From Boswellia sacra (Eukaryota; Streptophyta; Magnoliopsida; Sapindales; Burseraceae), in contig SNVD02001118.1 of NCBI GenBank assembly GCA_013180625.2, forward strand, positions 1 to 64,000: a stretch of DNA of 64,000 bases. The letters run 5' to 3'. How positions within the stretch are numbered: the first letter of the stretch is position 1; the number at the start of each line of letters is the position of its first letter. The position numbers and the translations under genes are program-made. The notes beneath the pieces were generated by a model. That model saw only the letters and a program-made list of their open reading frames with translations, was not told the origin of the DNA and searched no databases. Shown one piece after another: positions 392 to 47,904 of the stretch.

Positions 392-702
392 AAAGTGTTT
401 AAGCCGTTTCTGGACGTAAAACCAGAGGAAGATGTGAGCCACAGTCACAACTACCTGTACATTTGCATGCGTGCCATCATTTTTGAATTTTAATACCTCA
501 TTGCTGTCATTTTTGAATTTGTATGTTTTGTTTGACTTATGGTGTCTTATTTCATCATCTTTTGACCTTTTTTTGCATTATTGTCAACTTTTTCAACACC
601 GAGCTACCTAGATAGATATCATCATTAGCATACCTTTTTGCACTCCATAAATACCACATGTCTTGTTCTCTTCTTCACACAGAGTTAGAGAGTTGCATAG
701 AC

Positions 703-1353
703 ATGGAGGGAACTTCACAACGTCGAATCCAAAGGATATGTGTATTCTGCGGATCTCGACCGGGTAAAAGTGAGGAGTTTGTAGAAGTAGCAAACTATCT
801 TGGTAGGCTACTGGCTGAAAGAAAGATTCATGTGGTTTATGGAGGAGGTAGCCTCGGGTTAATGGGTTGCGTATCAACAGCTGCACATGTAGGAGGCAGT
901 CAAGTGTTAGGAGTTATTCCTAAAGCTTTGGCTGTAGAAAGCATTGTTGGAAAAACGGTTGGGAAGGAGTTACAGGTCTCCTCTATGCATGAACGCATGG
1001 CACATATGCTCATCAATTCAGATGCCTTTATTGCTTTACCAGGTGGCTTTGGCACTCTTGAAGAAATTTTTCAAATTGCCTCTTGGGCCCAACTGAATCT
1101 CCATAAAAAACCCATAGGTTTGTTGAATGTTAAAAATTTCTTTGATCCTTTGATAATTTTTGTTGATGCAGCTGTGGAACAGAATTTTATCCCTCATTCA
1201 GCGAGAAAGATCCTTATTTCTGCCACTTCTGCTGGTGAGCTACTTGACAAATTACAAGAAGTTGAGTATGAACCTGACCCAGCTAGTACTCAAATTAATT
1301 GGGCAGGAGGGCAAAACAAAAAGTGCAAATTGGATCTGAATCTCCGTTTGTAA
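703..1353 (+). CDS. LOG-like: LOG-family cytokinin-activating enzyme, intronless, in element A
   Basis: The 216-aa product carries the LOG family hallmarks: CVFCGS near residue 14, GGGSLGLMG near 48, GVIPK near 70, MHER near 95, and the PGGFGTLEE nucleotide-binding/catalytic motif near 113, followed by SWAQLNLHKKPIGLLNV. LOG enzymes cleave ribose 5'-phosphate from cytokinin nucleotides to give free cytokinin. I chose the ATG at 703 over the in-frame 658 because it aligns with the starts of the other two copies and gives the same length. Plant LOG genes normally have several introns; this one has none. It lies 311 bp after CRP-A and inside a retrotransposon tail. The usual Lys after MHxR is Met here. 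The C terminus ends KLDLNLRL, an LxLxLxL tail not expected in host LOGs. Catalytic activity is inferred. Confidence 0.9.
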   Translation: MEGTSQRRIQRICVFCGSRPGKSEEFVEVANYLGRLLAERKIHVVYGGGSLGLMGCVSTAAHVGGSQVLGVIPKALAVESIVGKTVGKELQVSSMHERMAHMLINSDAFIALPGGFGTLEEIFQIASWAQLNLHKKPIGLLNVKNFFDPLIIFVDAAVEQNFIPHSARKILISATSAGELLDKLQEVEYEPDPASTQINWAGGQNKKCKLDLNLRL

Positions 1354-12764: not shown

Positions 12765-12770
12765 AGTTTT

Positions 12771-12788
12771 TGGCGCCGTTGCCGGGGA
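12771..12788 (+). other. Primer binding site of element B
   Basis: TGGCGCCGTTGCCGGGGA, 6 bp after the LTR end, is the form typical of Athila-type elements. Confidence 0.85.
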
Positions 12789-12870
12789 TTGATTTTCTAA
12801 TCAATTTGTTATTCTGTTTTTACTACTAATTCTTGATTGTTATTTCTTGATTGTTTGTGTTTAGGCTTTT

Positions 12871-13901
12871 ATGTCCGAGGGAGAAGCGGATCAACGACTT
12901 AAGAGAATTAAGGAGTTTCTCCAATCCTCGAATTTAAGGCTAAATCGGTCAATTTCAACTCCACCTCCAGAATTTGACCTTGCACAACATACTTCCCTCC
13001 CATCTTCTTGCAGTTCAATCAAATCTGAATCGGAAGTAATGGCGATGGAAAACGATCAGACTCTTAAGGAGTTAGCGGCTCCAATTATTGATCAACAACC
13101 GCTATGCATAAGCACCAATTTTGAGATAGATTTTGAACTTAAATCTGGACTGATTCATCTCTTGCCTACATTTCATGGTTTTGCAGGAGAGGATCCGAAC
13201 AAACACCTCAAAGAATTTCATGTGGTATGCTCAAGTATGAAGCCAACCGGCGTTTCTGAAGAGCAAATTAAATTGAGAGCTTTCCCATTCTCATTAGCAG
13301 ATTCGGCAAAAGATTGGCTATACTACCTACCACCAGGTACCATTACCACTTGGAATGAGATGAGTAAACTCTTTTTGGAGAAATACTTTCCAGCCTCGAA
13401 AGTTACAAATATTAGAAAAGATATTAGTGGCATTCGACAACACAATGGAGAATCACTTCATGAATATAGGGAGAGATTTAAGAGGTTATGTGCTAGCTGT
13501 CCAAACCACCAAATTAGTGATGGACTCCTAATTCAATATTTCTATGAGGTTCTCCTACCCATGGAAAGGAGTATCATTGATGCTGCTAGTGGTGGAGCAC
13601 TAGTTAATAAAACACCGAACGTGGCAAGACGTTTGATTAGTGACATGGCAGCGAACTCCCAACAATTCAGCAGTCAATTTGAGCCACAACTATCAAAAAG
13701 AGTAAATGAGGTAAGTACTTCAAACATTGAACAACTTTGTGAACTTACCTCTCTTGTAAAAAAAAATGGCTGTAGGACATATGCAGCAATCTTATGCATG
13801 TGGAGTATGTTCTGGCATGGACCATCCAATCGACATGTGTCCAACTTTGCAAGAAGGAGATACAGAACAAGCCAATGCCATGGGTGGATTTCCAGGACAA
13901 C
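12871..13901 (+). pseudogene. gag: gag of element B, 5' part
   Basis: The start is the ATG at 12871, about 80 bp after the PBS. The retrotransposon gag domain is visible from about residue 100: FHGFAGEDPNKHLKEF, then DWLYYLPPGTITTWNEM, then FLEKYFPASK and LHEYRERFKRLCASCP. It forms the element's particle. A one-base change in the A-run at about 13757-13765 shifts the frame; the correct frame continues as MAVGHMQQSYACGVC, a zinc-knuckle-like segment, up to GGFPGQ. At 13902 a solo LTR splits the gene, which resumes in frame at 15028 once the 5-bp duplication is discounted. Confidence 0.88.
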
Positions 13902-15022: not shown

Positions 15023-15027
15023 ACAAC

Positions 15028-15836
15028 CAAGGCAAAGGTATGACCCTTTCTCCAATACTTACAATGCTGGATGGAGAGATCACCCTAATTTAAGATATGG
15101 GAATCGTCAACCAATCGCCCCAAATGCCATGCCAAATCGACCACCAGGTTTCAATCAATCAAGGGTGTAGCAACCATTTCAAGCACAACCACCACCAATA
15201 CCACAACCAGCACCACAACCAGCTCCACAAAATTCTGGTATGTCTCTCCAGGATATTGTTAAAGCACTTGCCACTAACACAATGCAATTTCAGTAGGAAA
15301 CTAGGGCAAGTATCCTAAACTTGGAAAATCAAATGGGACAATTGGCCACTAACATGAGCAAATTTGAGAGTCAAAGCTCAGGAAAATTACCTTCTCAGCC
15401 GGTGATCAATCCAAGAGAGAATGCTAGTGTTGTAACTTTGAGAAGTGGGAAGCAATTAGAGATTCCACCAAAGAAATCACAAACTGATGAAGGGGATGAC
15501 ACCACTCCCACCATGAATAAAACATCAACTTCTAAGGTAAATCCTAAAACCCATATTCCTTCATATGTTACTCCTCCACCTTTTCCTAGCAGATTTGCAA
15601 AATCAAAGAAGGAGGAACAAGAGCAGGAAATCTTGGAGACTTTTCGCAAGATCAAGGTAAATATACCACTTCTGGATGCTATTAAGCAAGTACCTTGTTA
15701 TGCAAAATTTCTCAAGGAGTTATGCACCAACAAGAAAAAGTTGAAAGGAAATGAGAAGGTAAGTGTGGGGAAAAATGTTTCAGCTGTATTGCAAAGAAAA
15801 ATTCCTCCGAAATGCAAAGATCCAGGTACGTTCACC
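15028..15836 (+). pseudogene. gag: gag of element B, 3' part
   Basis: Continues the gag frame with a Pro/Gln-rich stretch, then LENQMGQLATNMSK, KLPSQPVINPREN and PPPFPSRFAKSKKEEQEQEI, all typical of the Athila gag C terminus before the protease. In-frame TAG codons at 15168-15170 and 15294-15296 stand where CAG (Gln) is expected. The downstream frame is open from 15321. A one-base loss near 15838 moves the frame into the protease. Confidence 0.85.
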
Positions 15837-16500
15837 ATTCATGCACCATTGGTGATACCAAGTTTGAAAGAGCTACGTTAGATTTAGGAGCATCTATTAA
15901 TGTCATGCCATATTCTATTTATGCTTCTTTGAATCTTGGACCTCTTGCTGAAACTGGTATTGTAATTCAACTTGCTGATCGTTCTAATGCATATCCCAAG
16001 GGAGTTGTGGAAGATGTGCTTGTGCAGGTGAATCAATTGGTATTTCCAGCAGGCTTTTATGTTCTTGAAATGGAGGATAATACATCGCCAATCCAACACC
16101 GATTCTTTTGGGGAGACCATTCTTGAACCTGCCCGAACTAAGATTGATTGTGTCATGATGGCCTCTTACCATGGAAGTTGCATGGCGATGTGATTCATTT
16201 TCATATTTTTAGGCTGAGGTACCCTAGTGACTTGCATTCTGTTTTTGCAGTGGATGTTATCGATTCTTTGGCACAACAACTTTTTGAGTTCACTCACAAG
16301 GATGCATTCGAAGTAGCCATTAGTGAGCACATAGGGCAGAAAATTCCAGAGAATCGAGGCAGTTGATACAGTGTCTAAAGAAGTGGAGGAAGTTGTGGCA
16401 AGCTTGGATGAGACTAATAACTATCACCAAAACAGATATGATTTTTTCGTACATTGAATTGCCTTTATCTAATGAGAAATTCTTCCTTCGTGATGACAGC
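15837..16500 (+). pseudogene. pol: Retropepsin (aspartic protease) region of element B
   Basis: The protease motif DLGASINVMP is clear, followed by NLGPLAETGIVIQLADRS and VVEDVLVQVNQLVFPAGFYVLEM, as in Athila-type elements. It would cut the gag-pol polyprotein. Frameshifts near 15838, 16090 and 16370 and several stops break it. The homologous region in element C (31850-32430) is open. Confidence 0.82.
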
Positions 16501-18130
16501 CCCTTACCTTGGAGCTTAAGCCTCTTCCAGAACATTTGAAGTATGTATTCTTGGGTGAGAAAGATACTTTGCCAGTCATAATAGCAAAGGGCCTTGCACC
16601 ATTACAAGAAGAGAAACTCATCCGAGTGCTTCGAGATCACAAAACAGCCATTGGGTGGACGATCGCTGACATCAAAGGTATTAGCCCAGCAATATGCATG
16701 CACTGTATCTTATTAGAGAAGGATCCAAGCCCACTCGAGAAGCACAGCGGAGGTTGAATCCTCCAATGATGGAAGTTGTCAAGAAAGAAATCCTGAAATT
16801 GTTAGATTTGGGTGTGATTTATCCAATTTCGGATAGCAAGTGGGTGAGTCCAGTCCAAGTTGTTCCGAAGAAATCTGGTGTTACGGTGGTTAAGAATGAC
16901 AAAAATGAGCTAGTTCCCACTCGTATCCAAACCGGGTGGCGAGTTTGTATTGATTATCGAAAGCTCAATTCTGTAACTTGCAAGGATCACTTTCCTTTGC
17001 CATTCATTGATCAAATGCTGGAGAGATTAGCAGGTCATTCTCATTATTGTTTTCTTGATGGCTATTCAGGATATAATCAGATTGTCATTGCCCCTGAAGA
17101 TCAAGAGAAATCTACATTTACATGCCCATTTGGTACATTTGCGTATCGACGCATGCCGTTCGGTCTTTGCAATGCCCCTGCCACTTTCCAAAGGTGTATG
17201 GTAAGTATTTTCTCTGATTATGTTGAGAACATCATTGAGGTTTTTATGGATGACTTTAGTGTTTTTGGTGATTCTTTTGATGAATGCCTTGATAACCTTA
17301 CACTTATACTTCAAAGATGTATGGAAACTAACTTTGTTCTATATTAGAAAAAATGTCATTTTATGGTAGATCAGGGTATAGTTTTGGGACATGTTATTTC
17401 TGCTAAGGGTATAGAAGTTGATAAATCCAAGATAGATCTTATATGTTCCTTACCCCTTCCTACAAGTGTGCGGGATATTCGTTCGTCTCTCGGTCATGTA
17501 GGTTTCTATCATCGATTCATCAAAGATTTCTCGAAGATAGCATTGCCTCTATGCAGATTATTGCAGAATGATGTGGCCTTTGAATTTGATGAGAAATGCA
17601 AAGAGGCATTTGAGAAACTGAAGGAACTCTTGACTTCAGCTCTAATAATCCAATCTCCAAATTGGGATTATCCATTCGAGATCATGTCCGATGCGAGTGA
17701 CTACGCTGTGGGTGCCATTTTGGGTCAACGAATTGGCAGAATTCCACATGCCATTTACTATGCATCTCGGACTTTAAATGATGCTCAACTTAATTATTCT
17801 ACCACTGAGAAAGAGCTGCTAGCGGTTATTTTTGCTTTAGAAAAGTTTCGATCTTATTTGATTGGTACTAAAGTAACCGTTTATTCTGATCATGCAGCTT
17901 TGAGGTACTTGCTCACAAAGAAAGATGCTAAACCAAGGCTTATCAGGTGGATACTCCTTTTACAGGAATTTGACTTGGAGATCAAAGATAAGAAGGGAAG
18001 TGAAAACTTAGTTGCAGACCATCTCAATCGCATTGTCCATGACGAGGATGTACTGCCATTACAAGAAAGTTTTCCGGATGAACAATTGCTGTCTCTACAT
18101 GTAGCAGCACCTTGGTATGCAGATATTGTC
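16501..18130 (+). pseudogene. pol: Reverse transcriptase and RNase H of element B
   Basis: The linker LELKPLPEHLKYVFLGEK starts the region; a frameshift near 16700-16735 follows. RT is readable from AQRRLNPPMMEVVKKEILKL with VCIDYRKLNSVT, FPLPFIDQMLERLAG, PFGLCNAPATFQRCM and the catalytic FMDDFSVFG. An in-frame TAG at 17345-17347 replaces an expected TGG. The frame then reopens with [15 protein letters not shown], thumb motifs, and RNase H with [35 protein letters not shown] and [11 protein letters not shown]. It copies the element RNA to DNA. Non-functional here. Confidence 0.92.
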
Positions 18131-19375
18131 AATTACTTAGTTACGAAGAAGCTACCACATGACTTGACTCTAGCTCAAAGAGACAAGATCAAGAACATTG
18201 CCAAGTATTACATATGGGATGATCCGTACTTATGGAAGCATTGTTCTGACCAAGTGATAAGAAGGTGCATTTCTGAATCTGAATTTAATTCAATTTTAAC
18301 CTTCTGTCATTCTTATGCATGTGGAGGTCACTTCGGACCAAAAAGAACAGCCCTTAAAGTTCTTGATTGTGGATTCTACTGGCCATCATTGTTCAAAGAT
18401 GCATATCTATTCTGCAAAGCTTGTGACCGTTGTCAAAGGACAGGTAATTTAAGTGCCAAAAATCAAATGCCACAAACCCCTATACTTATTGTTGAGATTT
18501 TTGATGTGTGGGGTATTGATTTCATGGGTCCTTTTCCTTCATCTTTTGGTAATGTTTACATTATACTTGCTGTGGATTATGCTTCTAAATGGGTGGAAGC
18601 AAAAGCTACGAGAACTAATGATGCTAAAGTTGTTGTAGATTTTGTGAAATCTAACATTTTTCGAGATTTGGAACACCAAGAGCCATGATTAGCGATAGAG
18701 GGACACACTTCTGTAATAGATCATTTGAAGCCTTGCTCAAGAAATACAACATCACTCATAGGGTGTCTACTACATATTATCAACAAACTAGTGGTCAAGT
18801 TGAAGTTTCAAATCGGGAAGTCAAGTCCATTCTCGAGAAGACAGTGAATCCTAAAAGAAAAGATTGGAGCCTATGATTAAATGATGCACTTTGGGCATAC
18901 CGAACTGTTTACAAGACACCTATTGGTATGTCTCCGTATAGGTTAGTCTATGGTAAGCCATGTCACCTTCCAGTAGAGCTTGAACACAAAGCATGGTGGG
19001 CAGTAAAGCTTTGTAACATGGAGATGGATGCTGCTGAAGAACAAAGGAAGCTTCAACTGCAAGAATTGGAAGAACTTAGAAATGATGCCTATGAGAATTC
19101 CAGAATTTACAATGAGAGAACTAAGGCATTTCATGATAAAATGATCTCCAGGAAGAATTTTGAAGTGGGACAGAAAGTTCTTTTATTTCATTCTCACCTC
19201 AAGTTATTTTCAGGTAAATTACATTCTCGATGGGTTGGACCCTTTGCTATTACTGATGTCTTTTCCCATGGGCAGTGGAAAATCAAGAGGCTTAAAAAGC
19301 GGAAAAGATTAAGGTGAATGGGCAAGGTTGAGCCTTACTATGAGAAGGTTAGTGATATCAGGATATCGATAGGTA
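18131..19375 (+). pseudogene. pol: Integrase of element B
   Basis: The zinc-binding N-terminal domain ends in [14 protein letters not shown]. The core reads [15 protein letters not shown] (first Asp), [18 protein letters not shown] (second Asp) and [18 protein letters not shown] (Glu), then [25 protein letters not shown] one-base loss near 18661 and TGA at 18874-18876 (CGA expected) break it. The C-terminal part, [29 protein letters not shown], ends near 19317 with a further frameshift. It would insert element DNA into the host genome. Confidence 0.9.
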
Positions 19376-19858: not shown

Positions 19859-20413
19859 ATGGATGCCGATATCTTTCTGTCGAACCTTCGTAAATATTTT
19901 CCTTCACTTCCTCAAAATGCTGTGTTTAAAATTTAAAAAGTACGAATGACTAGACTTTGGGTATTGATGCTCTTAAATCTGCCTGCGGATATCCGATGGC
20001 TTATCGAAGCCAAGGTGAGATTGTCCGGTGAGCCTGACATTAATCTAGCAAAATACATGCCTGGTCTAGGGAAAAGCTACTACGCCAAAAGGCGAGGAGC
20101 GAAAAGGTTACAAGTATGTTATAAATGTGCTAGATGGAATTGTAACCAGACTTGTCGTTCATTAGGTTTTGCGTCCAGGAATAGAGAAGATAAACTTTCA
20201 TTTATTTAGAATGGTTTGAGTAATGAGTCGCTGGATAATGTTTTGTTAACTCTCGAGTCACATTCTTGTGGACTTGTTCAGCGTGAATTGCTTAATCTAT
20301 GGATACAATTTCGTGATGAATTGCAGTGTTATAGTCTAGGGAATCTGACTAAAAACGACCCTGTTTGCCAGTTTATAAGAAAACTGGATGGGAAGCAAAT
20401 CCCCGACTCATAG
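19859..20413 (+). pseudogene. Cysteine-rich basic ORF of element B (CRP-B)
   Basis: The ATG at 19859 (MDADIFLSNLRKYFPSLP) and TAG at 20411-20413 bound 185 codons broken by only two stops, TAA at 19934-19936 and TAG at 20207-20209 (AAG in both other copies). Features: MTRLWVLMLLNLPADIRWLI at residues 30-49, a basic tract GKSYYAKRRGAKRL near 66-79, a four-Cys finger C-x2-C-x4-C-x3-C near 82-94, FI-NGLSNESL near 115, and a C-terminal half with SHSCGLVQRELLNLW and CQFIRKLDGKQIPDS. The basic tract plus finger recalls carlavirus nucleic-acid-binding proteins; the C-terminal half matches nothing I recognise. It sits where Athila elements carry an env-like gene. Confidence 0.75.
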
Positions 20414-20640
20414 AAGGCGTTTCAGCCGTTCCTGGACGTAAAACCAGAGGAAGATGTGAGCCACAATCACAACTACTTGTATATTTTAATGTTTGTTGTT
20501 GTTGTCGAATTTTTTTTTCTTGTTTCGTTTGATCTGATTATCAATGTTGTTTTTGTGTTGTTATTGTTTGTTGATTTTGTTTGTTTTAATTTCAAGTTTT
20601 CTTTTTGACAAACCATATGACTACCTTATGGCATAAGTAC

Positions 20641-21037: not shown

Positions 21038-21688
21038 ATGGAGAAAACACCAATTCGGCGATTCCAAAATATATACGTATTTTGTGGATCGCAATTTGGT
21101 AAAGATGGAGAGTTTACAACAGCAGCTCTTGATCTTGGTAGGACATTAGCTGCGAGGGGTATTCATTTGATTTATGGAAGGGGTAGTCTTGGGTTAATGG
21201 GGTGTGTGTCGACAGCTGCATCCTTAGGAGGAAGCAAAGTTCTCAGCATTATCCTAAACCATTAGCTGTACGAGATATCGTAGGCAACACCATGGGGGAA
21301 GAGTTACAGGTTTCTAGTATGCATGAGCGTATTGCACATCTGGTTATTAAATCTGATGCATTTATAGCTTTGCCCGGTGGTTATGGTACATTAGAGGAGA
21401 TATTTCAAATCACCTCTTGGTCACAGCTAAACATCCATCGGAAACCCATTGGTTTGTTAAATGTCAATAATTTTTTTGATGGTTTGTTGTCTTTTCTTGA
21501 TCAAGCAGTAGAAAAAAAACTTCATCTCATAGTCGGCGAGGCAAATCCTGGTTACAGCTTCAACTGCAGGGGAGTTAATTGACAAATTACAAGCATTCGT
21601 CTATTCGCCTGATCCAACAATATCTTGGATAGATTGGTTTGGAGAAGGCAATAAGAGGCGTAAACTGGATTTAACGCTCCATCTGTAA
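21038..21688 (+). pseudogene. LOG-like: LOG-family gene of element B, frameshifted
   Basis: Aligns along its full length with the open copy in element C (34390-35040). ATG at 21038, TAA at 21686-21688, 651 bp in total because two errors cancel: one T lost near 21250 and one A gained in the A-run near 21512. GGGSLGLMG is altered to GRGSLGLMG. MHER and PGGYGTLEE are kept. The C terminus, read in the correct frame, ends RRKLDLTLHL, again the LxLxLxL tail. It would have been a cytokinin-nucleotide phosphoribohydrolase-like protein; this copy is not translatable in full. Confidence 0.9.
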
Positions 21689-23687: not shown

Positions 23688-25119
23688 TGATAAGTGTCTA
23701 TTTAAATATCTTTTTCATATCAATTCATCCATGTTTCTTTGCTATATTCCTTGGTATTTTTATGTTTTTGTGTGGTTTTGATGTTTGTAGGAGTTTTGGA
23801 GCAACTTGCACAAAAATGGCGTAAAACCCTTCATTTTCACCTCTGCTAGTCAGTGATCTTCTCGGAATTAATTGTATTGTTATACAATGAACCCGATGAC
23901 ATGTTATATACCGTTGGAAAGCTCTCGAAGTCTATTTTCTGGAGAAATTTACGGTTTATAAATCCATTCAGTGTACCAAAAGTTGTAATCAAAATAGTGT
24001 GAGAAGTATAGAAATGTAATTCCACAAATCACTGTAGCATGTATAATACGGGACACTGTAGCAGGTTACTGTAGCAGAGTATTTAAACACATTTTAGGCT
24101 TTTATTTTGATAACTTGAAGAGGGGAAAACGTGGGAGGAGGCTGCATTTCTGGATTTCTCTCATCCCTTGGAGTTCTTGAAGGAGAAAGAAGATTTTGAA
24201 AGAGGAGGAACTACAATTCCAAGAAGATTCATCTACAAAGAAGATTTTCAAAGAATTTGCTAATTTCTTTCTTTCCTTTTCAATTCTGGAATTTCTCTGT
24301 ATTGTATTTGTTATTCTGATTGAATATGTGTAACTAAATTTGAATTGGTTGAGGGTGATTTCAAAGCCCTTGATATGGATTTTGTGAGTTGATTGTGTAA
24401 GAAATTGTTATCCAATTCTCTAATTGAAGTTGCTTGTATTTTCCCATATCTAGTGCTTATGATTGCTTACTGATTGTATTTGGAATGGCCAACTGAATAT
24501 AATCTGTTGTTGTCTATTGCTAGATTAGAAATCTTGATCCGTAATTGTCATGAATTTCCAATCATTAGTAGCAAAATTGTGATCAGAGATTGCAATTGGA
24601 AAATACAACCTAGGTTAAATAATCCGAACTTGTGTGAGTATTGCTTAGATCAACCTATCTTTCTCATCGTAATGCTTCTATTGAATTAAACTTAGAGAGC
24701 TTGTTCTAGGTTGTTTAATGGATAGAGATTAAATAAAGAGCTTGTTTTATTTAACACAAAGTAAGGAAAGATTGGGATAACAGAGCTTGTTGTTTATCTA
24801 CGTTGATACGCTTCAGTGACTGTAGTTGGTGTACCATTCTATGTACTCACAATTCATGAGCTTGTGGCTGGAATGGGAGCACTTAACCAAATGCTCTCGT
24901 TGATTTTTTCACGGAGTCGCATTTACTTTGTGTTGTGTTATTGTGCATTTCTTAATATTCGATTTAGTCCGTCCTCAACAAAACCCCCCTAGTGTATATT
25001 CTGTGTGTGGTGCTTTTTGAATAACAAATTCAATTAGAATCAATCCTCGTGGGAACGATATCTTACTTATCACTTTATTACTTGTGCGACTAGTATACTT
25101 GCTAGTTTCGAACGCATCA
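23688..25119 (+). repeat. 3' LTR-B of element B
   Basis: A 1432-bp LTR, TGATAAGTGTCTATTT...TTCGAACGCATCA. A CACTGTAGCA-type motif is repeated near 24030-24080 before a TATTTAAAC box. About 130 bp near 24795-24925 are unusually divergent from C's LTRs while both sides match well, so that patch may be poor consensus. Confidence 0.9.
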
Positions 25120-29334: not shown

Positions 29335-29558
29335 GCTTACCCCCTACTTTAGAAAGGTTTGTGAGACATAAAAGTGGACAAAGAATTCTTGCTTTGTCTT
29401 GCTTTCTTCCATCTCGAGATCTTCGCCTTCATTTTTATTCTATCAGACTTTCTTATCATCTCTCTCTCTCTCCTTCTTGCTCTTACAAAAAGTGTGTCCA
29501 TTCAAGGGCTAGTGTGCCTATCTAAGGGCATGAGGTGCCCCATCTGAGGGTGAATGTG
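29335..29558 (-). repeat. Tat-like 3' tail with polypurine tract and minisatellite
   Basis: On the minus strand CTAAAGTAGGGGGTAAGC (29335-29352) adjoins the LTR, as at 4519-4536, so LTR-T copy 4 is a 3' LTR. A CT-rich region near 29455-29475 and the 'aagggctagtgtgccta' minisatellite follow. Element C is inserted at 29559; the tail resumes at 38412. Confidence 0.65.
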
Positions 29559-30970
29559 TGATAAGTGTCTATTTATGTATTACTTTCATATCAATTTGTC
29601 CATGTTTCTTTGCTATATTCCTTGGTATTTTTATGTTTTTGTGTGATTTTGATGTTTGTAGGAGTTTTGGAGTAACTTTCACAAAAATGAAGTAAAACCC
29701 TTCATTTTCACCTCTGCTAATCAACCAATTTCTCAGAGTTGATTGTATCGATATACAATTAACCGGATAACATGCTATATACCATTGAAAAGCTCTCGAA
29801 GTCTATTTTCTGGAGAAATTTACGGTTCACGAATTTATATAGTGTACCAAAAGTTATGATAAAAATGGTATGAGAAGTGTATATTTGTAATTCCACATAT
29901 CACTGTAGCATATTATTAAATACGGGGGCACTGTAGCAAGTTACTGTAGCAGAGTATATAAACATATTTTAGGGTTTTATTTTCATAACTTGAGGAGGGG
30001 GAAACTACTTGGAGGCTGCAGCTCTGGAATTCTCATCTTTTGGAGTTCTTGAAGGAGAAAGAAAGCTTGGAAAGAGGAAGAACTATAATTCAAAGAGATT
30101 TACATTAGAATTGCTAAGTTTTTCCCTTCCCTTTCATTTTCTGAAAAATTTGTATGTTGTATTGTATTTATCACGTTTTTGAACATGTGTAACTGAATCT
30201 GAATTGGTTGAGGGTGATTTCAAAGCCCTTGATATGGTTTTTGTTAGTTGATTGTGTAAGAAATTGTTATCCAATTCTCTAATTGAAGTTGTTTGCATTT
30301 TCCCATATCTAATGCTTATGATTGCTTGCTGATTGTATTTGAGGTGGCCAACTCAATATAATCTGGTTGTTGTCTATTGCTAGATTAGAAATCTTGATCC
30401 GTAATTGTCATGAATTTCTAATCATTAGTAGCAAAATTGTGATCAGAGATTGCAATTGGAAAATACAACCCAGGTTAAATAATCCGAACCTGTGTGATTA
30501 TTGCTTAGATCAACCTATCTTTCTTATCGTAATGCTTCCATTGAATTAAACTTAGAGAGCTTGTTCTAGGTTGTTTAATGGATAGAGATTAAATAAGAGC
30601 TTGTTTTATTTAACAACAAAGTAAGGAAAGATTGGGGTAATAGAGCTTGTTATTATCTACGGTTGATAACTTCAATGCTGTAATTAGATGACAATTCTAC
30701 AATTAATTCGCAAATCCATATCTTGTGGTAGAGAAGGATCTTTTAACCAGGTTTCTCTCATTGATTTTTCAATCTGTTTAAATTTGCATTGTGTTATTGT
30801 GCATTTACATTAATATTTCATTTAATTAATCCATCAACAAAACCCCACCATTTATTCTGTTGTTGCTTTTGAATAACAAATTCAATTGGAATCAATCCTT
30901 GTGGGAACGATATCTACTTATCACTTTATTACTTGTGCGACTAGTATACTTGCTAGTTTCGAACGCATCA
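29559..30970 (+). repeat. 5' LTR-B of element C
   Basis: 1412 bp, TGATAAGTGTCTATTT...GAACGCATCA, nearly the same as 37003-38411. Three ACTGTAGCA motifs near 29902-29950 precede a TATATAAAC box. Confidence 0.93.
29955..29963 (+). promoter_or_regulatory. TATA box of LTR-B (element C)
   Basis: GTATATAAAC follows three ACTGTAGCA repeats within 60 bp. The same arrangement is at 37396-37404 in the 3' LTR and, altered to TATTTAAAC, in element B's LTR. It is the likely promoter of the element RNA. Confidence 0.5.
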
Positions 30971-30976
30971 AGTTTT

Positions 30977-30989
30977 TGGCGCCGTTGCC
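30977..30989 (+). other. Shortened primer binding site of element C
   Basis: TGGCGCCGTTGCC is kept, but the following GGGGA of element B's site is replaced by the start of an inverted block. Confidence 0.75.
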
Positions 30990-31330
30990 TTGTTTGTCCT
31001 GGAAATCCATCCATGGCATTGGCTTGTTCCATATCTCCTTGCAAAGTTGGATACATGTCGATTGGATGCTCCATGGTAGAATATACCTCACATGCATAAG
31101 ATTTTTGCATATGTCCTACAGCCATGTTTTCCACAAGAAAAGTTAACTCAAAAAGTTGTTGTTCAATGTTCGGAGTGCTTACCTCATTTACTCTCCATGG
31201 TAGTTGTGGCTCAAATCCGCCACTGAATTGACGGAAGTTTACTGCCATGTCATCTAAACACAAACAATCAAAAAAGAAAAACAAACAAAAATATGAATCA
31301 ACAATGAAAACAAAATAACAAATCGATTAG
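30990..31330 (-). pseudogene. gag: Inverted leader and gag fragment in element C
   Basis: The minus strand holds the element leader (31252-31329, matching 12790-12865) fused to a mid-gag piece that reads MAVNFRQFSGGFEPQLPW, then NIEQQLFELTFLVENMAVGH and ANAMDGFPGQ. On the plus strand normal gag resumes at 31332. So a block of about 340 bp, already lacking the first roughly 255 gag codons, has been flipped in place between PBS and gag. It would prevent normal gag expression from the leader. Confidence 0.8.
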
Positions 31331-31331
31331 C

Positions 31332-32474
31332 ATGAGCAAATTCGAGGGCCAAGACTCAGAAAAATTGTCTTCTCAAACGGTGATCAATCCAAGAGAGAAT
31401 GCTTGTGTGATAACTTTGCAAAATGGAGAGCAATTAGATGTCCTGCCAAAGAAATCACAAACTGATGAAAGAGATGACACCACTTCTACCATGAACAAAA
31501 CACTGACTTCTCAGGTAAATCCTATAACTCCCATTCCTTCATATGTGTCTCCTCCACTTTTTCCTAGCAGATTGACAAAATTGAAGAAGGAGGAACAAGA
31601 ACAAGAAATCCTGAAAACTTCTCGTAAAATCGAGATAAATATACCACTTCTAGATGCTACCGAGCAAGTACCTTGTTATACAAAATGTCTCAAGGAGTTA
31701 TGCACCAGCAAGAGAAAGTTAAAAGGGAATGAGAAAGTAAGTGTGGGGAAAAATGTTTTAGCTGTACTACAAAGAAAATTTCCTCCGAAATGCAATAATC
31801 CAGGTACGATCACCATTCCATGCACCATTTGTAAAACCAAGTTTGAAAGAGCTATGTTAGATTTAGAAGCATCTATTAATGTCATGCCATATTTTATTTA
31901 TGCTTCCTTAAATCTTGGACCTTTTGCGAAAACTGGTATTACCATTCAACTTGCTGATCATTTTAACGCATATCCCAAAAGAGTTGTGGAAGATGTGCTT
32001 GTGCAGGTGAATCAATTGGTTTTCCTAGCAAACTTCTATGTCCTTGAAATAGAGAATGAGACATCTCATAATCCAACTCCGATTCTTTTAGGGGGACCAT
32101 TCTCGAAAACTGTTAGAACCAAGATTTATGTTCATGATGGCACTCTCATCATAGAGTTTAATGGCAAGGTGATATGTTTCAATATTTTTGAGGCAATGAG
32201 GTACTCTAGTGACTTACATTCTGTTTTTGCAGTTGACGTTGTTGATTTTTTGCCACAACAATATTTTGAGTTAACTCGCAAGAATGGATTGGATGTAGCT
32301 ATTAGTGAGCATATAGGGACAGAAAATTCCAATGAGTCAGGAATTTTTATACAAGTGTCCAAAGAAATGGAGGAAGTTGTGGCAAGCTTGGATGAGACTA
32401 TAGCTATCAACACAACAGGTATGGATGTTTCGTACATTCAATTACTTTCTCAAGGAAACTTCTTCCTTCTGTGA
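31332..32474 (+). CDS. gag-pol: gag C terminus plus protease of element C, open
   Basis: 380 codons open. The N-terminal part matches the gag C terminus (SQTVINPRENACVITLQNGE, PSYVSPPLFPSRLTKLKKEE), then the CTICKTKFERAMLDLEASIN stretch with the retropepsin motif changed from DLGAS to DLEAS, then the PR body LADHFNAYPKRVVEDVLVQV. The first Met (31332) is internal to the original gag, so this is an in-frame remnant rather than a natural start. The Gly-to-Glu change in the protease motif suggests an inactive protease. Homologue: 15350-16500 in element B. Confidence 0.8.
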   Translation: MSKFEGQDSEKLSSQTVINPRENACVITLQNGEQLDVLPKKSQTDERDDTTSTMNKTLTSQVNPITPIPSYVSPPLFPSRLTKLKKEEQEQEILKTSRKIEINIPLLDATEQVPCYTKCLKELCTSKRKLKGNEKVSVGKNVLAVLQRKFPPKCNNPGTITIPCTICKTKFERAMLDLEASINVMPYFIYASLNLGPFAKTGITIQLADHFNAYPKRVVEDVLVQVNQLVFLANFYVLEIENETSHNPTPILLGGPFSKTVRTKIYVHDGTLIIEFNGKVICFNIFEAMRYSSDLHSVFAVDVVDFLPQQYFELTRKNGLDVAISEHIGTENSNESGIFIQVSKEMEEVVASLDETIAINTTGMDVSYIQLLSQGNFFLL

Positions 32475-33209: not shown

Positions 33210-33766
33210 ATGGCTGCGGATATCTTTCTATCGACATTCGTAAATTTTTCCCTTCCCTTTCGTCAGAATGCTGTGTTTAAAATTTATCGAAGTACGCAAT
33301 GACTAGACTTTGGGCGTATGATGCTACCTTAAATGTGTGTCGCGTGGCGGATATCCGACTGGCTTGTGTGCGTGAGCCACTGAGATTTCCAGAGAACCTG
33401 ACATTATCTCCGCAAAATATATGCCTGGTCTAGGGACAAGCTACTACCAAGAGGCGAAGCAGCGAAGAGTTTACAAGTATGTTTAAAATGTCCAATGGAT
33501 TATACCTGACTTGTCGTTCATTAGGTTTTGTGTCCAGAAATAGAGAAGATAAACTATCATTTATTAAGAATGGTCTAAGTAATGAGTCGCTGGATCTGTC
33601 TCTTATACACATCTAGATGTGTATAAGAGACAGGCGTGAATTGCTTAATCTATGGACACAATTTCGTGATGAATTGCAGTGTTATAGTCTAGGGAATCTG
33701 ACTAAAAATGACACTGTTTGCCAGTTTATAAGAAAACTGGATGGGAAGCAAATCCCCGACTCATAG
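33210..33766 (+). pseudogene. Cysteine-rich basic ORF of element C (CRP-C), disrupted
   Basis: Aligned with CRP-B from an ATG at 33210 (MAADIFLS) to TAG at 33764-33766. The finger region (33420-33520) and the stretch 33320-33480 have many small indels, so the frame is lost several times. A 38-bp Tn5 mosaic-end palindrome at 33596-33633 replaces about 43 bp of coding sequence. The C-terminal part (CQFIRKLDGKQIPDS) is clean. Much of the damage may be assembly error rather than real decay, so the true state of this gene is unknown. Confidence 0.65.
33596..33633. other. Back-to-back Tn5/Nextera mosaic ends (library artefact)
   Basis: CTGTCTCTTATACACATCT followed at once by its exact reverse complement. 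This 19-bp sequence is the hyperactive Tn5 mosaic end used in tagmentation kits. It replaces about 43 bp present in element B (near 20235-20278). It is almost certainly an adaptor junction left in the assembly and not plant DNA. Confidence 0.95.
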
Positions 33767-33997
33767 AAGGCGTTTCAGCCGTTACTGGACGTAAACCAGA
33801 GGAAGATGTGAGCCACAATCACAACTACTTGTATATTTGAATGTGTGTTGTTGTTGTCGAATTTTATTTCTTTCTTGTTTCGTTTGATTTGATTATCAAT
33901 GTTGTTTTTTTGTGTTGTTGTTGTTTGTTGATTTTGTTTGTTTTAATTTCAAGTTTTCTTTTTTACAAACCACATGACTACCCTATGGCATAAGTAT

Positions 33998-34389: not shown

Positions 34390-35040
34390 ATGGAGAAAAC
34401 ACCAATTCGGCGATTCCAAAATATATGCGTATTTTACGGATCGCAATTTGGTAAAGATGGAGAATTTACAACAGTAGCTCTTGATCTTGGTAGGACATTA
34501 GCTGTGAGGGGTATTAATTTGATTTATGGAGGGGGTAGTCTTGGGTTAATGGGGTGTGTGTCGACAGCTGTATCCTTGGGAGGAAGTAAAGTTCTCGGCA
34601 TTATTCCTAAACCATTAGCTGTGCGAGATATCATAGGCAACACAATGGGGGAAGAGTTACAAGTCTCTAGCATGCATGAGTGTATTGCACATATGGTCAT
34701 TAAATTTGATGCATTTATAGCTTTGCCCGGTGGTTATGGTACATTAGAGGAGATATTTCAAATCACATCTTGGGCTCAGCTAAACATCCATCGAAAACCC
34801 ATTGGTTTGTTAAATGTCAATAATTTTTTTGATGGTTTGTTGTGTTTTCTTGATCAAGCAGTAGAAAAAAACTTCATCTCACAGTCGGCGAGGCAAATCC
34901 TGGTTACAGCTTCAACTGTAGGGGAGTTAATTGACAAATTACAAGCATTCGTTTATTCGACTGATCCAATAATAGCTCGGATAGATTGGTTTGCGGAAGG
35001 CAATAAAAGGCGTAAACTAGATTTAACGCTAAGTCTGTAA
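34390..35040 (+). CDS. LOG-like: LOG-family cytokinin-activating enzyme, intronless, in element C
   Basis: 216 aa, open throughout. Motifs: ICVF.GS near 12, GGGSLGLMG near 48, LGIIPKPLAV near 69, ALPGGYGTLEE near 111, and SWAQLNIHRKPIGLLNVNNF. The conserved catalytic-site Arg of MHxR is Cys here (MHEC), while A and B keep Arg, so this copy may be catalytically dead. The C terminus KRRKLDLTLSL joins a basic cluster to an LxLxLxL tail. The gene lies 624 bp after CRP-C and 1.96 kb before the 3' LTR. About 60% identical to the element A copy. It is clearly element cargo: no introns, the same flanks in B and C, and an LTR and TSD on each side. Confidence 0.9.
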   Translation: MEKTPIRRFQNICVFYGSQFGKDGEFTTVALDLGRTLAVRGINLIYGGGSLGLMGCVSTAVSLGGSKVLGIIPKPLAVRDIIGNTMGEELQVSSMHECIAHMVIKFDAFIALPGGYGTLEEIFQITSWAQLNIHRKPIGLLNVNNFFDGLLCFLDQAVEKNFISQSARQILVTASTVGELIDKLQAFVYSTDPIIARIDWFAEGNKRRKLDLTLSL

Positions 35041-37002
35041 TCTTTATCTACTGGTTTGCTTCACTTTTGTTTGCTCTCTTTTTATTGTGTTTATTTGAGA
35101 TTTTTCATGTTATTTCTTTTGAGCTTTTTCAGGTTATTTCTTTCGTCCCAGATAATATTTTCTAATCTCGGTTTTTAGAGTGGTGGCTTAAAAAGTTCAA
35201 GTTCTCTTGAAACGCATTCTGGATCTCTTCAATCCATAATGGCTGACTAAGGAGGCTAACTTCTAAACTTTGTAGACCCATTCTAACTAACTTGTTTTTG
35301 TTTGCTGACTTGTTGAACTTTGTTATTATATGAGTAAGTTTAGTTTTGCGTAATTTAAAGTTATTATGTGTTTTTATCTTTATCAGTTTCGATTTAAAAA
35401 AAAAATTGTGGAAAAACCTGAGAATGGCAGAATATGGGTTTCCTTAACCCTTGAAACGCATTCCTCCTTAATAACTTTGTAGTTTGTTTATTTCATGTTG
35501 TTTGAACTGTCTTGTTTCTTGTTTTGTTCTTCATAATAAAGGTATATAGGCTGGAAACCTTAAGTCTGCGGGCTATCGGTCCTAAGGATTGTTGAAATAT
35601 ACCATCTTGACTCAGGTGTAACAACGCCACGTACCTCTTTTCTTGCATTTTGTGGGTCGATGATAAGATAATGATTGAATTAAGAATAACTCTTGGAAAA
35701 AGATAAATGATGCATGGATCTGTGTGCTTGAAATGTTTATTGGTTTTCGCTTTGCTTTTGATTCCTTGCGCAACATTGAGCACTGAGCTATTATCACTAA
35801 GTTATTTGTTCACTTAGAGGAAGTTTATGTAATTTAAATGTTTCTTCAGATTTCAATGAATTCTAGAACTTGTTTGATGGTCACTCGAGGCGAAATCCTA
35901 GACTGTGCAACATTGGGGAAATGATTTAGGCCATCGTTGGACCGTTTGAGCCTTAATAGCCAACCTTGACAGAAATTGATCCCTAGTTACCCCTTTGAGC
36001 CTCTGTAATCCTATTTCTTTGTTAACTCACTAAAGATTTCCTAACCTAAAATGATTTTGTTCCAAACAGTTAATCCCTTACATATGAGCATGTAGATCAT
36101 TCACAATTAAATTCTGAGCTATGTTATGGTTTTGGGAAGTTAGAGGAGGTTGGGATGTATCATGAGCAATACAAGTGAGTTCCATTGTGTTTGTAAAAAA
36201 AAAAAAGAAAAACAGAAAAAAAAAGCCAATCTGTACCTATCGTCCACGTACTTACACATTGAGGACAATGTGTTGTTTAAGTGTGGGGGAGGGGAAGTGT
36301 AATAAAAAAAAAGAAAAAAAAGAACAAAAGAAGAAGAATAAGAGATCTATACCCTTAAGTGTTCTTAAAAAGAATGAAACAACAAAGGGTGGGGGTGTAG
36401 TTTTCTTTTGTTTTCTGCGAAAAAAGAAGATTGAGTGTTCTAAATAAGTTTGGGGGAGTAACCTGGTGAATTAAAATAAAGATGTGTTATAGGGTTGAGC
36501 TCTACATAATCTTGAATGATTTATGTGTTTGTGGGTGATTTGACCCAAATTATTATCCTTCATCATACCTTCACCCAAGCCAAACGTTACAAGCTTAATA
36601 AAGTCCTACTTGATCCTTGGTGTTGTACATGTCTACATTAGTGGAGAGTGACTTGAAAAGCAGGCCTATGGAGTTCATTTATACACACATCTTCAATATT
36701 AAATATGATTCATTTTTATGCATAAACTCTTCCGGTTTACAAGTGATTAGGTGAGAATGGCTCTACACACACACACTTGAGGAATTGAAGTGAAGCGAAA
36801 CTAATATTTGAGATGAAATTCTTGATCAAAGTGCATTATTTTGAAGTTTTCCTTGGGTCATAATTAAGTACAATCTTTGAGGCCTATTTGCAAGATGAAG
36901 CATTTGTGTGTTTTAATTTTTTGTTGATTCTGTTTCGGTTTAGTTTTATTTCACATTGTCGTAGTTGCTCGAGGACTAGCAAAGTCTAAGTGTTGGGGAA
37001 TT
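35041..37002 (+). other. Non-coding 3' tail of element C
   Basis: No gene seen. Same markers as in B: CTCTTGAAACGCATTCT at 35214-35230 and a variant at 35448-35464, a CCTTAAG...CCTAAGG hairpin region near 35557-35587, ACATTGAGGACAATGT at 36256-36271 followed by GTGTGGGGGAGGGG, A-rich runs, and AAGTGTTGGGGAATT before the LTR at 37003 (the polypurine tract, with one G changed to T compared with B). Confidence 0.7.
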
Positions 37003-38411
37003 TGATAAGTGTCTATTTATATATCATTTTCATATCAATTCGTCCATGTTTCTTTGCTATATTCCTTGGTATTTTTATGTTTTTGTGTGGTTTTGATGTT
37101 TGTAGGAGTTTTGGAGCAACTTGCACAAAAATGGAGTAAAACCCTTCATTTCACCTCTGCTAATCAACCAATTTCTCGGAGTTGATTGTATCGATATACA
37201 ATTAACCGGATAACATGCTATATACCATTGAAAAGCTCTCGAAGTCTATTTTCTGGAGAAATTTACGGTTCACGAATTTATGTAGTGTACCAAAAGTTAT
37301 GATAAAAATGGTATGAGAAGTGTATATTTGTAATTCCACATGTCACTGTAGCATATTATTAAATACGGGCACTGTAGCAAGTTACTGTAGCAGAGTATAT
37401 AAACATATTTTAGGGTTTTATTTTCATAACTTGAAGAGGGGGAAACTACTTGGAGGCTGCAGCTCTGGAATTCTCTCATCTTTTGGAGTTCTTGAAGGAG
37501 AAAGAAAGCTTGGAAAGAGGAAGAACATAATTCAAAGAGATTTACATCAGAATTGCTAAGTTTTTCCCTTCCCTTTCATTTTCTGAAAAATTTGTATGTT
37601 GTATTGTATTTATCACGTTTTTGAACATGTGTAACTGAATCTGAATTGGTTGAGGGTGATTTCAAAGCCCTTGATATGGTTTTTGTGAGTTGATTGTGTA
37701 AGAAATTGTTATACAATTCTCTAATTGAAGTTGCTTGTATTTTCCCATATCGAATGCTTATGATTGCTTACTGATTGTATTTGGAATGGCCAACTGAATA
37801 TAATCTGTTGTTGTCTATTGCTAGATTAGAAATCTTGATCCGTAATTGTCATGAATTTCCAATCATTAGTGGCAAAATTGTGATCAGAGATTGCAATTGG
37901 AAAATACAACCTAGGTTAAATAATCCGAACTTGTGTGATTATTGCTTAGATCAACCTATCTTTCTCATCGTAATGCTTCCATTGAATTAAACTGAGAGAG
38001 CTTGTTCTAGGTTGTTTAATGGATAGAGATTAAATAAAGAGCTTGTTTTATTTAACAACAAAGTAAGGAAAGATTGGGATAACAGAGCTTGTTGTTATCT
38101 ACGGTTGATAACTTCAATGCTGTAATTGGATTACAATTCTATGTTAATTCACAAATTCATATCTTGTGGCAGAGAAAGAACCCTTAACCAAGTGTCTCTC
38201 ATTGATTTTTCACTCCATTTTACCTTTTATTGTGTTATTATGCATTTACATTAATATTTCATTTAATTAATCCATCAACAAAACCCCCTCATTTATTCTG
38301 TTGTTGCTTTTGAATAACAAATTCAATTGGAATCAATCCTCGTGGGAACGATAGCTACTTATCACTTTATTACTTGTGCAACTAGTATACTTGCTAGTTT
38401 CGAACGCATCA
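37003..38411 (+). repeat. 3' LTR-B of element C
   Basis: 1409 bp, paired with 29559-30970. The TATA box TATATAAAC is at 37396-37404. It is followed by the ATGTG target copy. Confidence 0.93.
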
Positions 38412-38590
38412 ATGTGCCTATCTAAGGGCGAATGTGCCCATTCAAGGGCTAGAAAACAACCTTATAATGCTATGAGAGACACTCTTCAATGCACCTACTT
38501 CTTAGGATTTGGTAACACTCTTCAGTATACCTACTTCTTAGGGCTTCAAACACTCTTAAGTGCACATTCTGGAAAAGAGCATTGACAGCC
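38412..38590 (-). repeat. Tat-like tail resumed: minisatellites
   Basis: Continues the tail cut at 29558, with 'ctatctaagggcgaatgtg' units, then a repeat of about 45 bp (CACTCTTCAATGCACCTACT, 38479-38570). The same repeat occurs in the opposite orientation at 44163-44460. Confidence 0.55.
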
Positions 38591-47899: not shown

Positions 47900-47904
47900 A
47901 TACG

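What the first reader, a model, noticed from the sequence alone, without database searches (positions are those of the whole stretch)
34390..35040. Retrotransposon carries an intronless LOG (cytokinin-activating) gene as cargo
Seen: open or nearly open 216-codon LOG genes sit in the same place, between pol and the 3' LTR, in three Athila-like elements (703-1353, 21038-21688, 34390-35040), with element tail and LTR on the 3' side and, for C, a TSD on both sides. Known: plant LOG genes have several introns and their product makes free cytokinin. Inference: a spliced host LOG mRNA was captured by an ancestor and kept. An element able to change local cytokinin could favour the dividing or meristem cells in which new insertions reach the germ line.
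Basis: partly seen in the sequence, partly recalled or inferred. Interest (0 to 1): 0.88.

Follow-up and report, generated by a model that had tools for sequence, protein, structure and literature searches.

The report
Jumping genes carrying a remodelled enzyme
Jumping genes in this plant genome carry and conserve an intron-free gene of the plant hormone-enzyme family LOG, beside a gene resembling a plant-virus nucleic-acid-binding protein; this LOG differs from host LOGs in its substrate pocket and its tail, was likely captured once from a host messenger RNA, and would now help the jumping gene to manipulate its host cell.

Summary
Three Athila-like elements have a LOG gene between integrase and 3' LTR: A open, B frameshifted, C open but without the catalytic arginine. 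It is not local: 150 of 150 scored LOG matches in the 639-Mb source genome are unbroken, and 20 of 20 fetched loci are LTR-element copies. Element-type LOGs form one clade (99/95), supporting a single capture. In 18 usable copies picked by non-coding flank, shared changes are mostly synonymous (36:14) and private ones not (43.5:80.5; p about 1e-5), indicating selection on the gene.

The plain cytokinin reading is weakened: catalytic Arg/Glu are usually kept, but the pocket pair Lys100/Glu125 is intact in only 1 of 171 element-type proteins outside the Sapindaceae type, and a basic plus LxLxL (EAR-type) tail is gained (147 of 176; host LOGs 0 of 59). A second cargo ORF upstream matches the carlavirus nucleic-acid-binding family (E 1.8e-10) and precedes LOG in 20 of 20 loci and one maple gene model. 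In 14 of 20 loci RT and integrase are gone while both cargo genes remain. LOG domains in Citrus and Populus Gypsy elements were already reported. Function is inferred.

The parts
34390..35040 (+). LOG ORF of element C (216 aa, open; catalytic Arg replaced by Cys; pocket Lys100->Ile, Glu125->Gln)
35005..35037 (+). C-terminal tail codons KRRKLDLTLSL (basic stretch plus LxLxL, EAR-type)
29559..30970 (+). 5' LTR of element C
   Evidence: LTR-LTR K2P 0.044
30973..30989 (+). stretch holding the primer-binding site of C (TGGCGCCGTTGCC, tRNA-Asp type as recalled)
31308..32474 (+). gag-protease linker remnant of C; RT and integrase are deleted downstream
33434..33834 (+). broken NABP-like ORF of C, upstream of LOG
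   Evidence: Pfam match of this piece itself only E 0.16; assigned by similarity to A and B
36988..37002 (+). polypurine tract region of C
37003..38411 (+). 3' LTR of element C
29554..29558 (+). target site duplication ATGTG, left
38412..38416 (+). target site duplication ATGTG, right
703..1353 (+). LOG ORF of element A (216 aa, open; catalytic Arg and Glu kept; Lys100->Met, Glu125->Gln)
1318..1350 (+). C-terminal tail codons of A, KKCKLDLNLRL
2..460 (+). NABP-like ORF of A (in-frame stops; cut by the window's left end)
   Evidence: (Carla_C4 E 1.3e-6)
2706..4232 (+). 3' LTR of element A
   Evidence: 98.6% to the LTR of an A-family element elsewhere in the genome
12447..12764 (+). end of the 5' LTR of element B (truncated)
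12767..12783 (+). primer-binding site region of B
12865..13900 (+). gag of B, then interrupted by an A-family LTR copy
15297..15881 (+). gag-protease linker of B (no Pfam family; assigned by position and by likeness to the Acer fusion)
16685..17347 (+). reverse transcriptase of B
17348..18688 (+). RNase H and integrase of B
18877..19317 (+). integrase C-terminal part of B (assigned by position; no Pfam family above its cut-off)
19937..20482 (+). NABP-like ORF of B (in-frame stops)
   Evidence: (Viral_NABP E 7.3e-8)
21038..21688 (+). LOG of B, frameshifted
23688..25119 (+). 3' LTR of element B

Best explanation
A lineage of Athila-like LTR retrotransposons carries two conserved cargo genes between integrase and the 3' LTR, a plant-virus NABP-like ORF and an intronless LOG, and the LOG likely came from one captured host messenger RNA and is predicted to act as a nuclear, TOPLESS-recruiting effector with changed nucleotide specificity rather than as a plain cytokinin activator. 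Shown by sequence: position, one clade against the host LOGs sampled, purifying selection, catalytic Arg/Glu usually kept, Lys100/Glu125 lost, basic plus LxLxL tail present, constant NABP-LOG order, and presence of both genes in copies that lost RT and integrase. Inferred: capture from a spliced mRNA; altered substrate; that the tail is a nuclear signal plus a working EAR motif; that the NABP-like protein counters RNA silencing as a carlavirus relative does; that the pair helps pol-less copies to be transcribed and mobilised by autonomous relatives. The steps would be: LTR transcription; LOG made from a subgenomic or spliced message; entry into the nucleus; titration of the TOPLESS co-repressor (or hydrolysis of a nucleotide); weaker host silencing and more transposition.
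For: Element-borne: LTRs, TSD and shared slot; 20 of 20 genome loci with the NABP-like ORF upstream of LOG on the same strand, 17 of 20 with a C/B-type 3' LTR and 2 more with an A-type LTR pair; identical 5-bp TSDs in 5 of 6 loci with both LTRs wholly covered, LTR pairs 0.003-0.074 diverged in 9 loci. Beyond this species: gene models of Acer saccharum (P0135) and Xanthoceras (P0003, P0123) join gag-protease linker to LOG, and Acer yangbiense P0136 joins the NABP-like ORF to LOG. One clade. Selection: A-C LOG dN/dS 0.15-0.16 against 1.1-2.0 out of frame; flank-picked copies pN/pS 0.25, shared 36 syn:14 nonsyn, private 43.5:80.5, Fisher p 1e-5 to 2e-5; NABP-like A-B 0.16, pooled pN/pS 0.30 in 12 pol-less copies. 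Remodelling; LOG fold with a disordered tail (mean pLDDT 87; residues 203-216 under 50), best PDB match 2a33. NABP: PF05515 E 1.8e-10 to 2.6e-10 in 6 of 6 open copies scanned, no NABP hit in 10 shuffles. Pol-less: 14 of 20 loci have no RT or integrase hit beyond short remnants.
Against: No activity, localisation or TOPLESS binding is tested. LxLxL alone is not enough: in PMC7446885 (passages read) none of ten LxLxL-containing Hpa effectors tested bound TOPLESS. 29 of 176 full-length element-type proteins lack LxLxL; 9 of these are Sapindaceae-type and end at the basic stretch, others are truncated or have one Leu changed. Many copies are broken: only 6 of 18 flank-picked LOGs are open, B and C of the window are defective, all three window NABP-like copies carry stops, and 6 of 12 pol-less copies have a broken NABP-like frame. 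The protein sets are the top 120 rows of three searches, many from unnamed metagenomes; the first 20 genome loci were chosen among the best-scoring LOGs. Shared changes may include recurrent mutations. Host LOGs of this genome were not reached, so the donor gene is unknown. No RT phylogeny against named Athila references was done.
Confidence: 0.55

Rival explanations
1. The element LOG is still an ordinary cytokinin-activating enzyme: it releases free cytokinin in cells where the element is transcribed and so raises division and inheritance of new insertions; the pocket changes are neutral and the tail is only a localisation or stability feature.
For: Fold, PGGxGTxxE and catalytic Arg/Glu kept in A; purifying selection; the early-branching Sapindaceae type (11 of 11) and P0140 keep Lys100/Glu125.
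Against: Lys100 and Glu125, named as adenine/prenyl-site residues in PMC4979012 section 6, are kept together in only 1 of 171 element-type proteins outside the Sapindaceae type (169 lack both, P0182 keeps Lys only); the host LOGs sampled keep the pair in 59 of 59.
Confidence: 0.25
2. Passenger: LOG and the NABP-like ORF were captured once and are carried along without function; conservation reflects recent amplification from few master copies.
For: Many copies are broken (12 of 18 flank-picked); low LTR divergence in some copies.
Against: Between families A and C dS exceeds 1.3 while dN is about 0.22-0.25; changes shared by copies are mainly synonymous and private ones are not; L212, L214 and L216 are invariant in 22 diverse proteins that I chose; the cargo is present where RT and integrase are lost.
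Confidence: 0.1
3. Host genes hit by elements: ordinary host LOG paralogues into or beside which retrotransposons inserted independently.
For: Database names such as LOGL10 in Populus treat some as host genes.
Against: Same slot and NABP-like neighbour in 20 of 20 loci, TSDs outside the LTRs, one clade.
Confidence: 0.02

Closest known systems
YgdH (LOG-type) domain in Gypsy LTR retrotransposons of Citrus sinensis, C. clementina and Populus trichocarpa (Alvarado-Marchena et al. 2022, PMC9289625: abstract, passages and section 12 seen; it cites Steinbauerova et al. 2011, which is not held and was not read)
   Same: LOG-type domain inside Ty3/Gypsy elements of rosid hosts; Populus proteins in our lists belong to the element-type clade
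   Different: in what I read, two sentences on the domain's presence and on LOG; no tail, pocket, NABP-like neighbour, selection or pol-less copies
[quoted passage not shown] review PMC7264820, part 1 of 3 of the text read)
   Same: sense ORF between pol and 3' LTR, present in most copies examined; pol-less Athila copies that keep env are known (PMC2410132, passages)
   Different: the cargo here is a recognisable enzyme of host kind plus an RNA-virus-like protein, not env-like
Orchid Gypsy elements with a working AlkB m6A demethylase (PMC9289625, abstract)
   Same: host-type enzyme acquired by a Ty3/Gypsy lineage and proposed to reflect host surveillance against TEs
   Different: different enzyme; activity shown there, not here
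Plant and bacterial LOG enzymes (AtLOG3 2a33, AtLOG8 1ydh, CgLOG 5its)
   Same: fold, PGGxGTxxE, catalytic Arg/Glu
   Different: pocket Lys100/Glu125 lost, basic plus LxLxL tail present
Carlavirus cysteine-rich / nucleic-acid-binding protein (PF05515, PF01623; potato virus H CRP, PMC3689765, passages)
   Same: profile match over about 105 residues, basic motif followed by a Cys cluster
   Different: Cys spacing C-x2-C-x4-C-x3-C against C-x2-C-x9-C-x4-C in potato virus H; sits in a retrotransposon; silencing suppression untested
Pathogen effectors that bind TOPLESS by an EAR motif (HaRxL21, PMC7446885, passages; Jsi1, PMC8126959, search listing only)
   Same: HaRxL21 has LxLxL at its C terminus, as here
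   Different: carried by a transposable element on an enzyme; binding untested

Membership tests
LOG (cytokinin riboside 5'-monophosphate phosphoribohydrolase) | PF03641 / TIGR00730 match and LOG fold | tested here: met
   (TIGR00730 168 and 164 bits, cut-off 96; equivalog NF058542 under its cut-off of 300, but so is Arabidopsis P0174)
LOG (cytokinin riboside 5'-monophosphate phosphoribohydrolase) | catalytic Arg99 and Glu122 (CgLOG numbers) | tested here: met
   met in A, in 19 of 19 parsed of 20 loci, Arg in 18 of 18 and Glu in 17 of 18 flank-picked copies, Arg in 159 and Glu in 163 of 171 database proteins; not met in window copy C (Arg->Cys)
LOG (cytokinin riboside 5'-monophosphate phosphoribohydrolase) | prenyl/adenine pocket Lys100 and Glu125 | tested here: not met
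   changed in A and C; kept together in 1 of 171 element-type proteins outside the Sapindaceae type. So it is filed as LOG-family by fold, not as a cytokinin-activating LOG
LOG (cytokinin riboside 5'-monophosphate phosphoribohydrolase) | phosphoribohydrolase activity on cytokinin nucleotides | not testable with these tools
   needs an enzyme assay
Athila lineage of Ty3/Gypsy | gag, RT, RNase H, integrase in Ty3 order, one RNase H region, no chromodomain | tested here: met
   Pfam on the open pieces of element B; no chromodomain match; the interrupted piece 18689-18876 was not scanned
Athila lineage of Ty3/Gypsy | 5-bp TSD | tested here: met
   not evident for one A-family element (C657)
Athila lineage of Ty3/Gypsy | placement by RT/RH/INT phylogeny with named Athila elements | not tested
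Athila lineage of Ty3/Gypsy | env-like or Athila ORF-1 (PF03078) | tested here: inconclusive
   no PF03078 match in scanned pieces; PMC6317226 (passages) finds it in 16% of Athila elements, so absence does not decide
EAR-motif proteins | LxLxL motif near a terminus | tested here: met
   147 of 176 full-length element-type proteins, 0 of 59 host
EAR-motif proteins | TOPLESS binding / repression | not testable with these tools
   needs yeast two-hybrid or co-IP
Carlavirus-type NABP/CRP | profile match above curated cut-off | tested here: met
   PF05515 41-42 bits (cut-off 23) in 6 of 6 open copies scanned; no NABP hit in 10 shuffles, two of which gave unrelated hits at E 0.08 and 0.25
Carlavirus-type NABP/CRP | basic motif followed by zinc-finger-like Cys cluster | tested here: inconclusive
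   basic stretch and four Cys present in A and B, spacing differs from potato virus H; the structure model was poor (pLDDT 48)
Carlavirus-type NABP/CRP | suppression of RNA silencing | not testable with these tools

The most novel reading that the evidence does not exclude
The element carries a two-part counter-silencing kit built from foreign genes: a silencing-suppressor-type protein taken from a plant RNA virus and a host LOG turned into a TOPLESS-sequestering nuclear enzyme; pol-less copies spread because they keep only this kit and borrow the replication machinery.
Probability: 0.3. Interest if true: 0.9.

Novelty: new variant of a known kind. Interest (0 to 1): 0.72.

Why it matters
Plant LTR retrotransposons often carry extra ORFs of unknown use. 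Here the cargo is recognisable, its relatives occur in several rosid families, and it is present in copies that have lost their own replication genes, which makes the question 'what do extra ORFs do for the element' directly testable by enzyme, TOPLESS-binding and localisation assays. It would also show capture of an RNA-virus protein by an LTR element, and it warns that genes annotated as LOG or LOGL10 in rosid genomes may belong to transposons.

Tried and rejected
Led nowhere: viral contigs with P0002 (3 pattern matches, 0 relatives), with alignment A3 (24 of 41 stretches are relatives, 24-31% identical, not followed), with B's RH-INT piece (4 pattern matches, 0 relatives). The fold of the NABP-like piece was too poor to search (pLDDT 48). 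tRNA and Rfam scans of the window: none. Papers on PF05515/PF01623: one search found 2 papers, both on glyoxalases by their titles; the 10 listed of 4,588 papers hold none of those accessions. Steinbauerova 2011 is not held.

Considered and rejected: host genes hit independently; a peroxisomal C-terminal signal for the tail, because residue -3 is mostly Leu (read off; rule recalled); independent capture in A and C (not sister rows in the tree, but holding them together is not rejected, AU p 0.373; both lie in one 11-row set at 98/81). The claim that A lacks an LTR, first drawn, was dropped. An early note of 18 loci with a 3' LTR is corrected here to 17, and an LTR coordinate in an early note by one base.

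Not reached: host LOG genes of this genome (P0151 unanswered) and a genome-wide PF05515 count.

Full report
1. Observation. The window is plant DNA (by its retroelements and relatives) from a 638.6-Mb assembly in 7431 contigs, organism not named. LOG frames lie at 703-1353 (A, open), 21038-21688 (B, frameshifted) and 34390-35040 (C, open); A and C match PF03641. C is bounded by LTRs 29559-30970 and 37003-38411, K2P 0.044 over 1407 sites, with TSD ATGTG, a primer-site-like stretch and a polypurine tract. B and C align at 89% over 5.8 kb through LOG, and A aligns with both at 68-75% over its NABP-like and LOG parts. A's 3' LTR is 2706-4232, recognised because two A-family elements elsewhere have 1.53-kb LTR pairs around LOG (C657, 95.9% identical, no TSD evident; C6751, 98.1%, TSD CTCTC read from the flanks), and the window stretch is 98.6% identical to that LTR.

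2. Genome-wide. PF03641 gave 10198 first-look candidates, of which 150 were scored; 150 of 150 were over the cut-off without internal stop (a lower bound, the candidates are not a copy count). I fetched 20 of these 150 with about 10 kb each (two cut by contig ends). In 20 of 20 the NABP-like ORF, or in L050 its end, precedes LOG on the same strand; 17 of 20 have a C/B-type LTR on the 3' side, 2 are A-family with their own LTR pair, 1 (L044) shows only the 5' LTR. In 14 of 20 there is no RT or integrase hit beyond remnants of at most 47 residues; 4 have both RT and integrase, 1 (L052) has integrase, 1 (L050) is too short to tell. Five of the six loci whose two LTRs are wholly covered show identical 5-bp TSDs; for the sixth (L039) the ends were not resolved. 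LTR divergences in nine loci (three compared over a part) run from 0.003 to 0.074. So pol-less elements of about 9 kb carrying NABP-like and LOG genes have inserted recently; that they are mobilised in trans is inferred.

3. The LOG protein. The model of protein A is confident over the core (mean pLDDT 87) with residues 203-216 under 50, and its best PDB matches are plant LOGs 2a33 and 1ydh. With CgLOG numbering (PMC4979012, section 6 and passages), the catalytic pair is Arg99/Glu122, and Met96, His97, Lys100, Glu125 and Trp129 form the inferred prenyl site. Of 241 proteins of 195-245 aa (of 253 held): Lys100/Glu125 occur together in 59 of 59 host LOGs, 11 of 11 Sapindaceae-type (three of them unnamed metagenome proteins) and 1 of 171 other element-type proteins (P0140; P0182 keeps Lys only, 169 lack both); Arg99 is kept in 159 and Glu122 in 163 of 171. 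The labels host and element-type were set by name and search context; the tree below, with the trait columns left out, gives the same split. Element-type proteins end in a basic stretch plus LxLxL: 147 of 176 full-length ones (200-245 aa; 1.4 expected on shuffling) against 0 of 59 host; 154 of 176 if Ile, Met, Val or Phe may replace Leu; by representatives 50 of 62 against 0 of 17. Of the 29 without it, nine are Sapindaceae-type and end at KRRLA, KRRLD or RKLA. In A and C all four tail leucines are kept although their codons differ. In the genome loci the tail is LxLxL in 19 of 20. Likeness to the SUPERMAN/SRDX motif is recalled. LxLxL does not by itself predict TOPLESS binding (PMC7446885, passages).

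4. Origin. A tree of 84 rows (79 representatives of the 241 proteins at 88% identity, 2 Acer fusions, 3 PDB-derived fragments), with tail and pocket columns left out, makes the 64 element-type rows one side of a branch (99/95, 100% of 200 bootstraps); Sapindaceae-type rows and P0140 branch before the remaining 57, the latter split weakly (89/63). Relatives were listed for Reevesia (48 clusters, 199 member sequences by my sum; members are not certified to be of one species), Diplodiscus, Pterospermum (one cluster of 327), Populus, Melia, Parasponia, Xanthoceras and Acer; for most of these the element context was not examined. Gene models join them to element sequence: Acer saccharum P0135 44-199 matches B's gag-protease linker (E 1e-21), Xanthoceras P0003 and P0123 carry a short piece of the same linker (E 6e-4 and 8e-4), P0137 resembles P0135 by eye though its linker gave no hit at the cut-off, and Acer yangbiense P0136 1-142 matches the NABP-like ORF of B, A and C (E 4e-47, 5e-40, 2e-25). 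P0136's model skips the Cys cluster, and its first 142 residues alone hit no Pfam family. That the donor was a spliced mRNA follows from the uninterrupted frame; plant LOG introns are recalled, not tested.

5. The NABP-like ORF. Pieces of A and B hit Carla_C4 (E 1.3e-6 and 2.1e-4) and Viral_NABP (E 5.7e-5 and 7.3e-8); six genome copies open over 158 codons hit Viral_NABP at E 1.8e-10 to 2.6e-10, 41-42 bits with cut-off 23, over about 105 residues; 10 shuffles gave no such hit. All three window copies are broken; intact copies exist elsewhere. [quoted passage not shown] Function here is inferred.

6. Selection. A-C LOG: dN/dS 0.154 with saturating dS 1.6; by a second alignment 0.16 in frame, 1.10 and 2.04 out of frame. 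NABP-like: A-B 0.16, A-C 0.24, B-C 0.51 in frame; out of frame 0.85-1.37. As a control, the gag-protease linker B-C gave 0.36 in frame and 0.64 and 0.94 out of frame, so out-of-frame values can fall below 1. In 12 pol-less copies pooled pN/pS is 0.18 for LOG, 0.30 for NABP-like and 0.51 for the protease-region remnant (out of frame 1.56/3.06, 1.12/0.87, 0.73/0.74); matched stretches free of stops and length shifts: LOG 11 of 12, NABP-like 6 of 12, remnant 6 of 12. Those copies were chosen among the best LOG scores, which favours LOG. I therefore took the 20 best matches after the window itself (of 40 scored, 949 first-look candidates) to a 351-base non-coding stretch downstream of LOG: 18 of 20 cover at least 200 codons and 2 were dropped; 6 of 18 are open; Arg99 18, Glu122 17, Glu125->Gln 18, Lys100 lost 18, LxLxL seen in 16 (in the other 2 the alignment stops before the end); pN/pS 0.25 against 1.21 and 1.86 out of frame. 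Changes shared by two or more copies: 36 synonymous, 14 non-synonymous; private: 43.5 and 80.5; Fisher p 1e-5 to 2e-5 with rounded counts. I read this as a gene kept in the transposing lineage that decays after insertion. Arabidopsis Athila gag, pol and env show values of 0.09-0.46 in a table of PMC2410132 that I take to be dN/dS (passages only, header not seen).

7. Known or new. Alvarado-Marchena et al. 2022 (PMC9289625; abstract, passages, section 12) report the YgdH domain in Citrus and Populus LTR-element consensuses, in line with Steinbauerova et al. 2011 (not read). The large survey PMC6317226 (passages) counted extra ORFs of at least 250 codons, so a 216-codon ORF would be missed. My ten searches listed no other paper whose title or abstract start describes LOG in retroelements or an NABP-like ORF in them; no search paired the EAR motif with LOG, only parts of each list were shown, and this library lacks most subscription papers. 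Hence a new variant of a known kind.

8. Mechanism. I commit to the remodelled-effector reading at about 0.55, of which the cargo part (one lineage, selected) is much firmer than the TOPLESS part. Main rival: ordinary cytokinin activation.

Noticed in passing
window 13902-15023 and 46373-47899: Further copies of the A-family LTR (96-99%): one, internally altered, interrupts B's gag; one stands on the minus strand without a partner LTR in the window.
   Followed up: partly
window 20640-20832: Tandem array of a 67-bp unit (2.9 copies) between the NABP-like ORF and LOG in element B.
   Followed up: no
window 26394-27368 (-) and 62778-63998 (-): Ty1/copia gag with zinc knuckle, and copia reverse transcriptase (RVT_2).
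   Followed up: no
window 61172-61711 (-): ORF with a weak match to Transposase_32 (E 2.8e-7, below its curated cut-off).
   Followed up: no
proteins P0003, P0004, P0123, P0124 of Xanthoceras: Gene models with two LOG domains, likely annotation fusions across neighbouring element copies.
   Followed up: partly
P0112 (Pterospermum kingtungense) and Reevesia clusters: Cluster of 327 LOG proteins (90% identity clustering); LOG or LOGL10 annotations in rosid genomes may often be transposon genes.
   Followed up: partly
window 4538-12088 and 39238-54984: Several diverged inverted and direct repeat blocks of about 1-1.7 kb (64-89%), origin not worked out.
   Followed up: no
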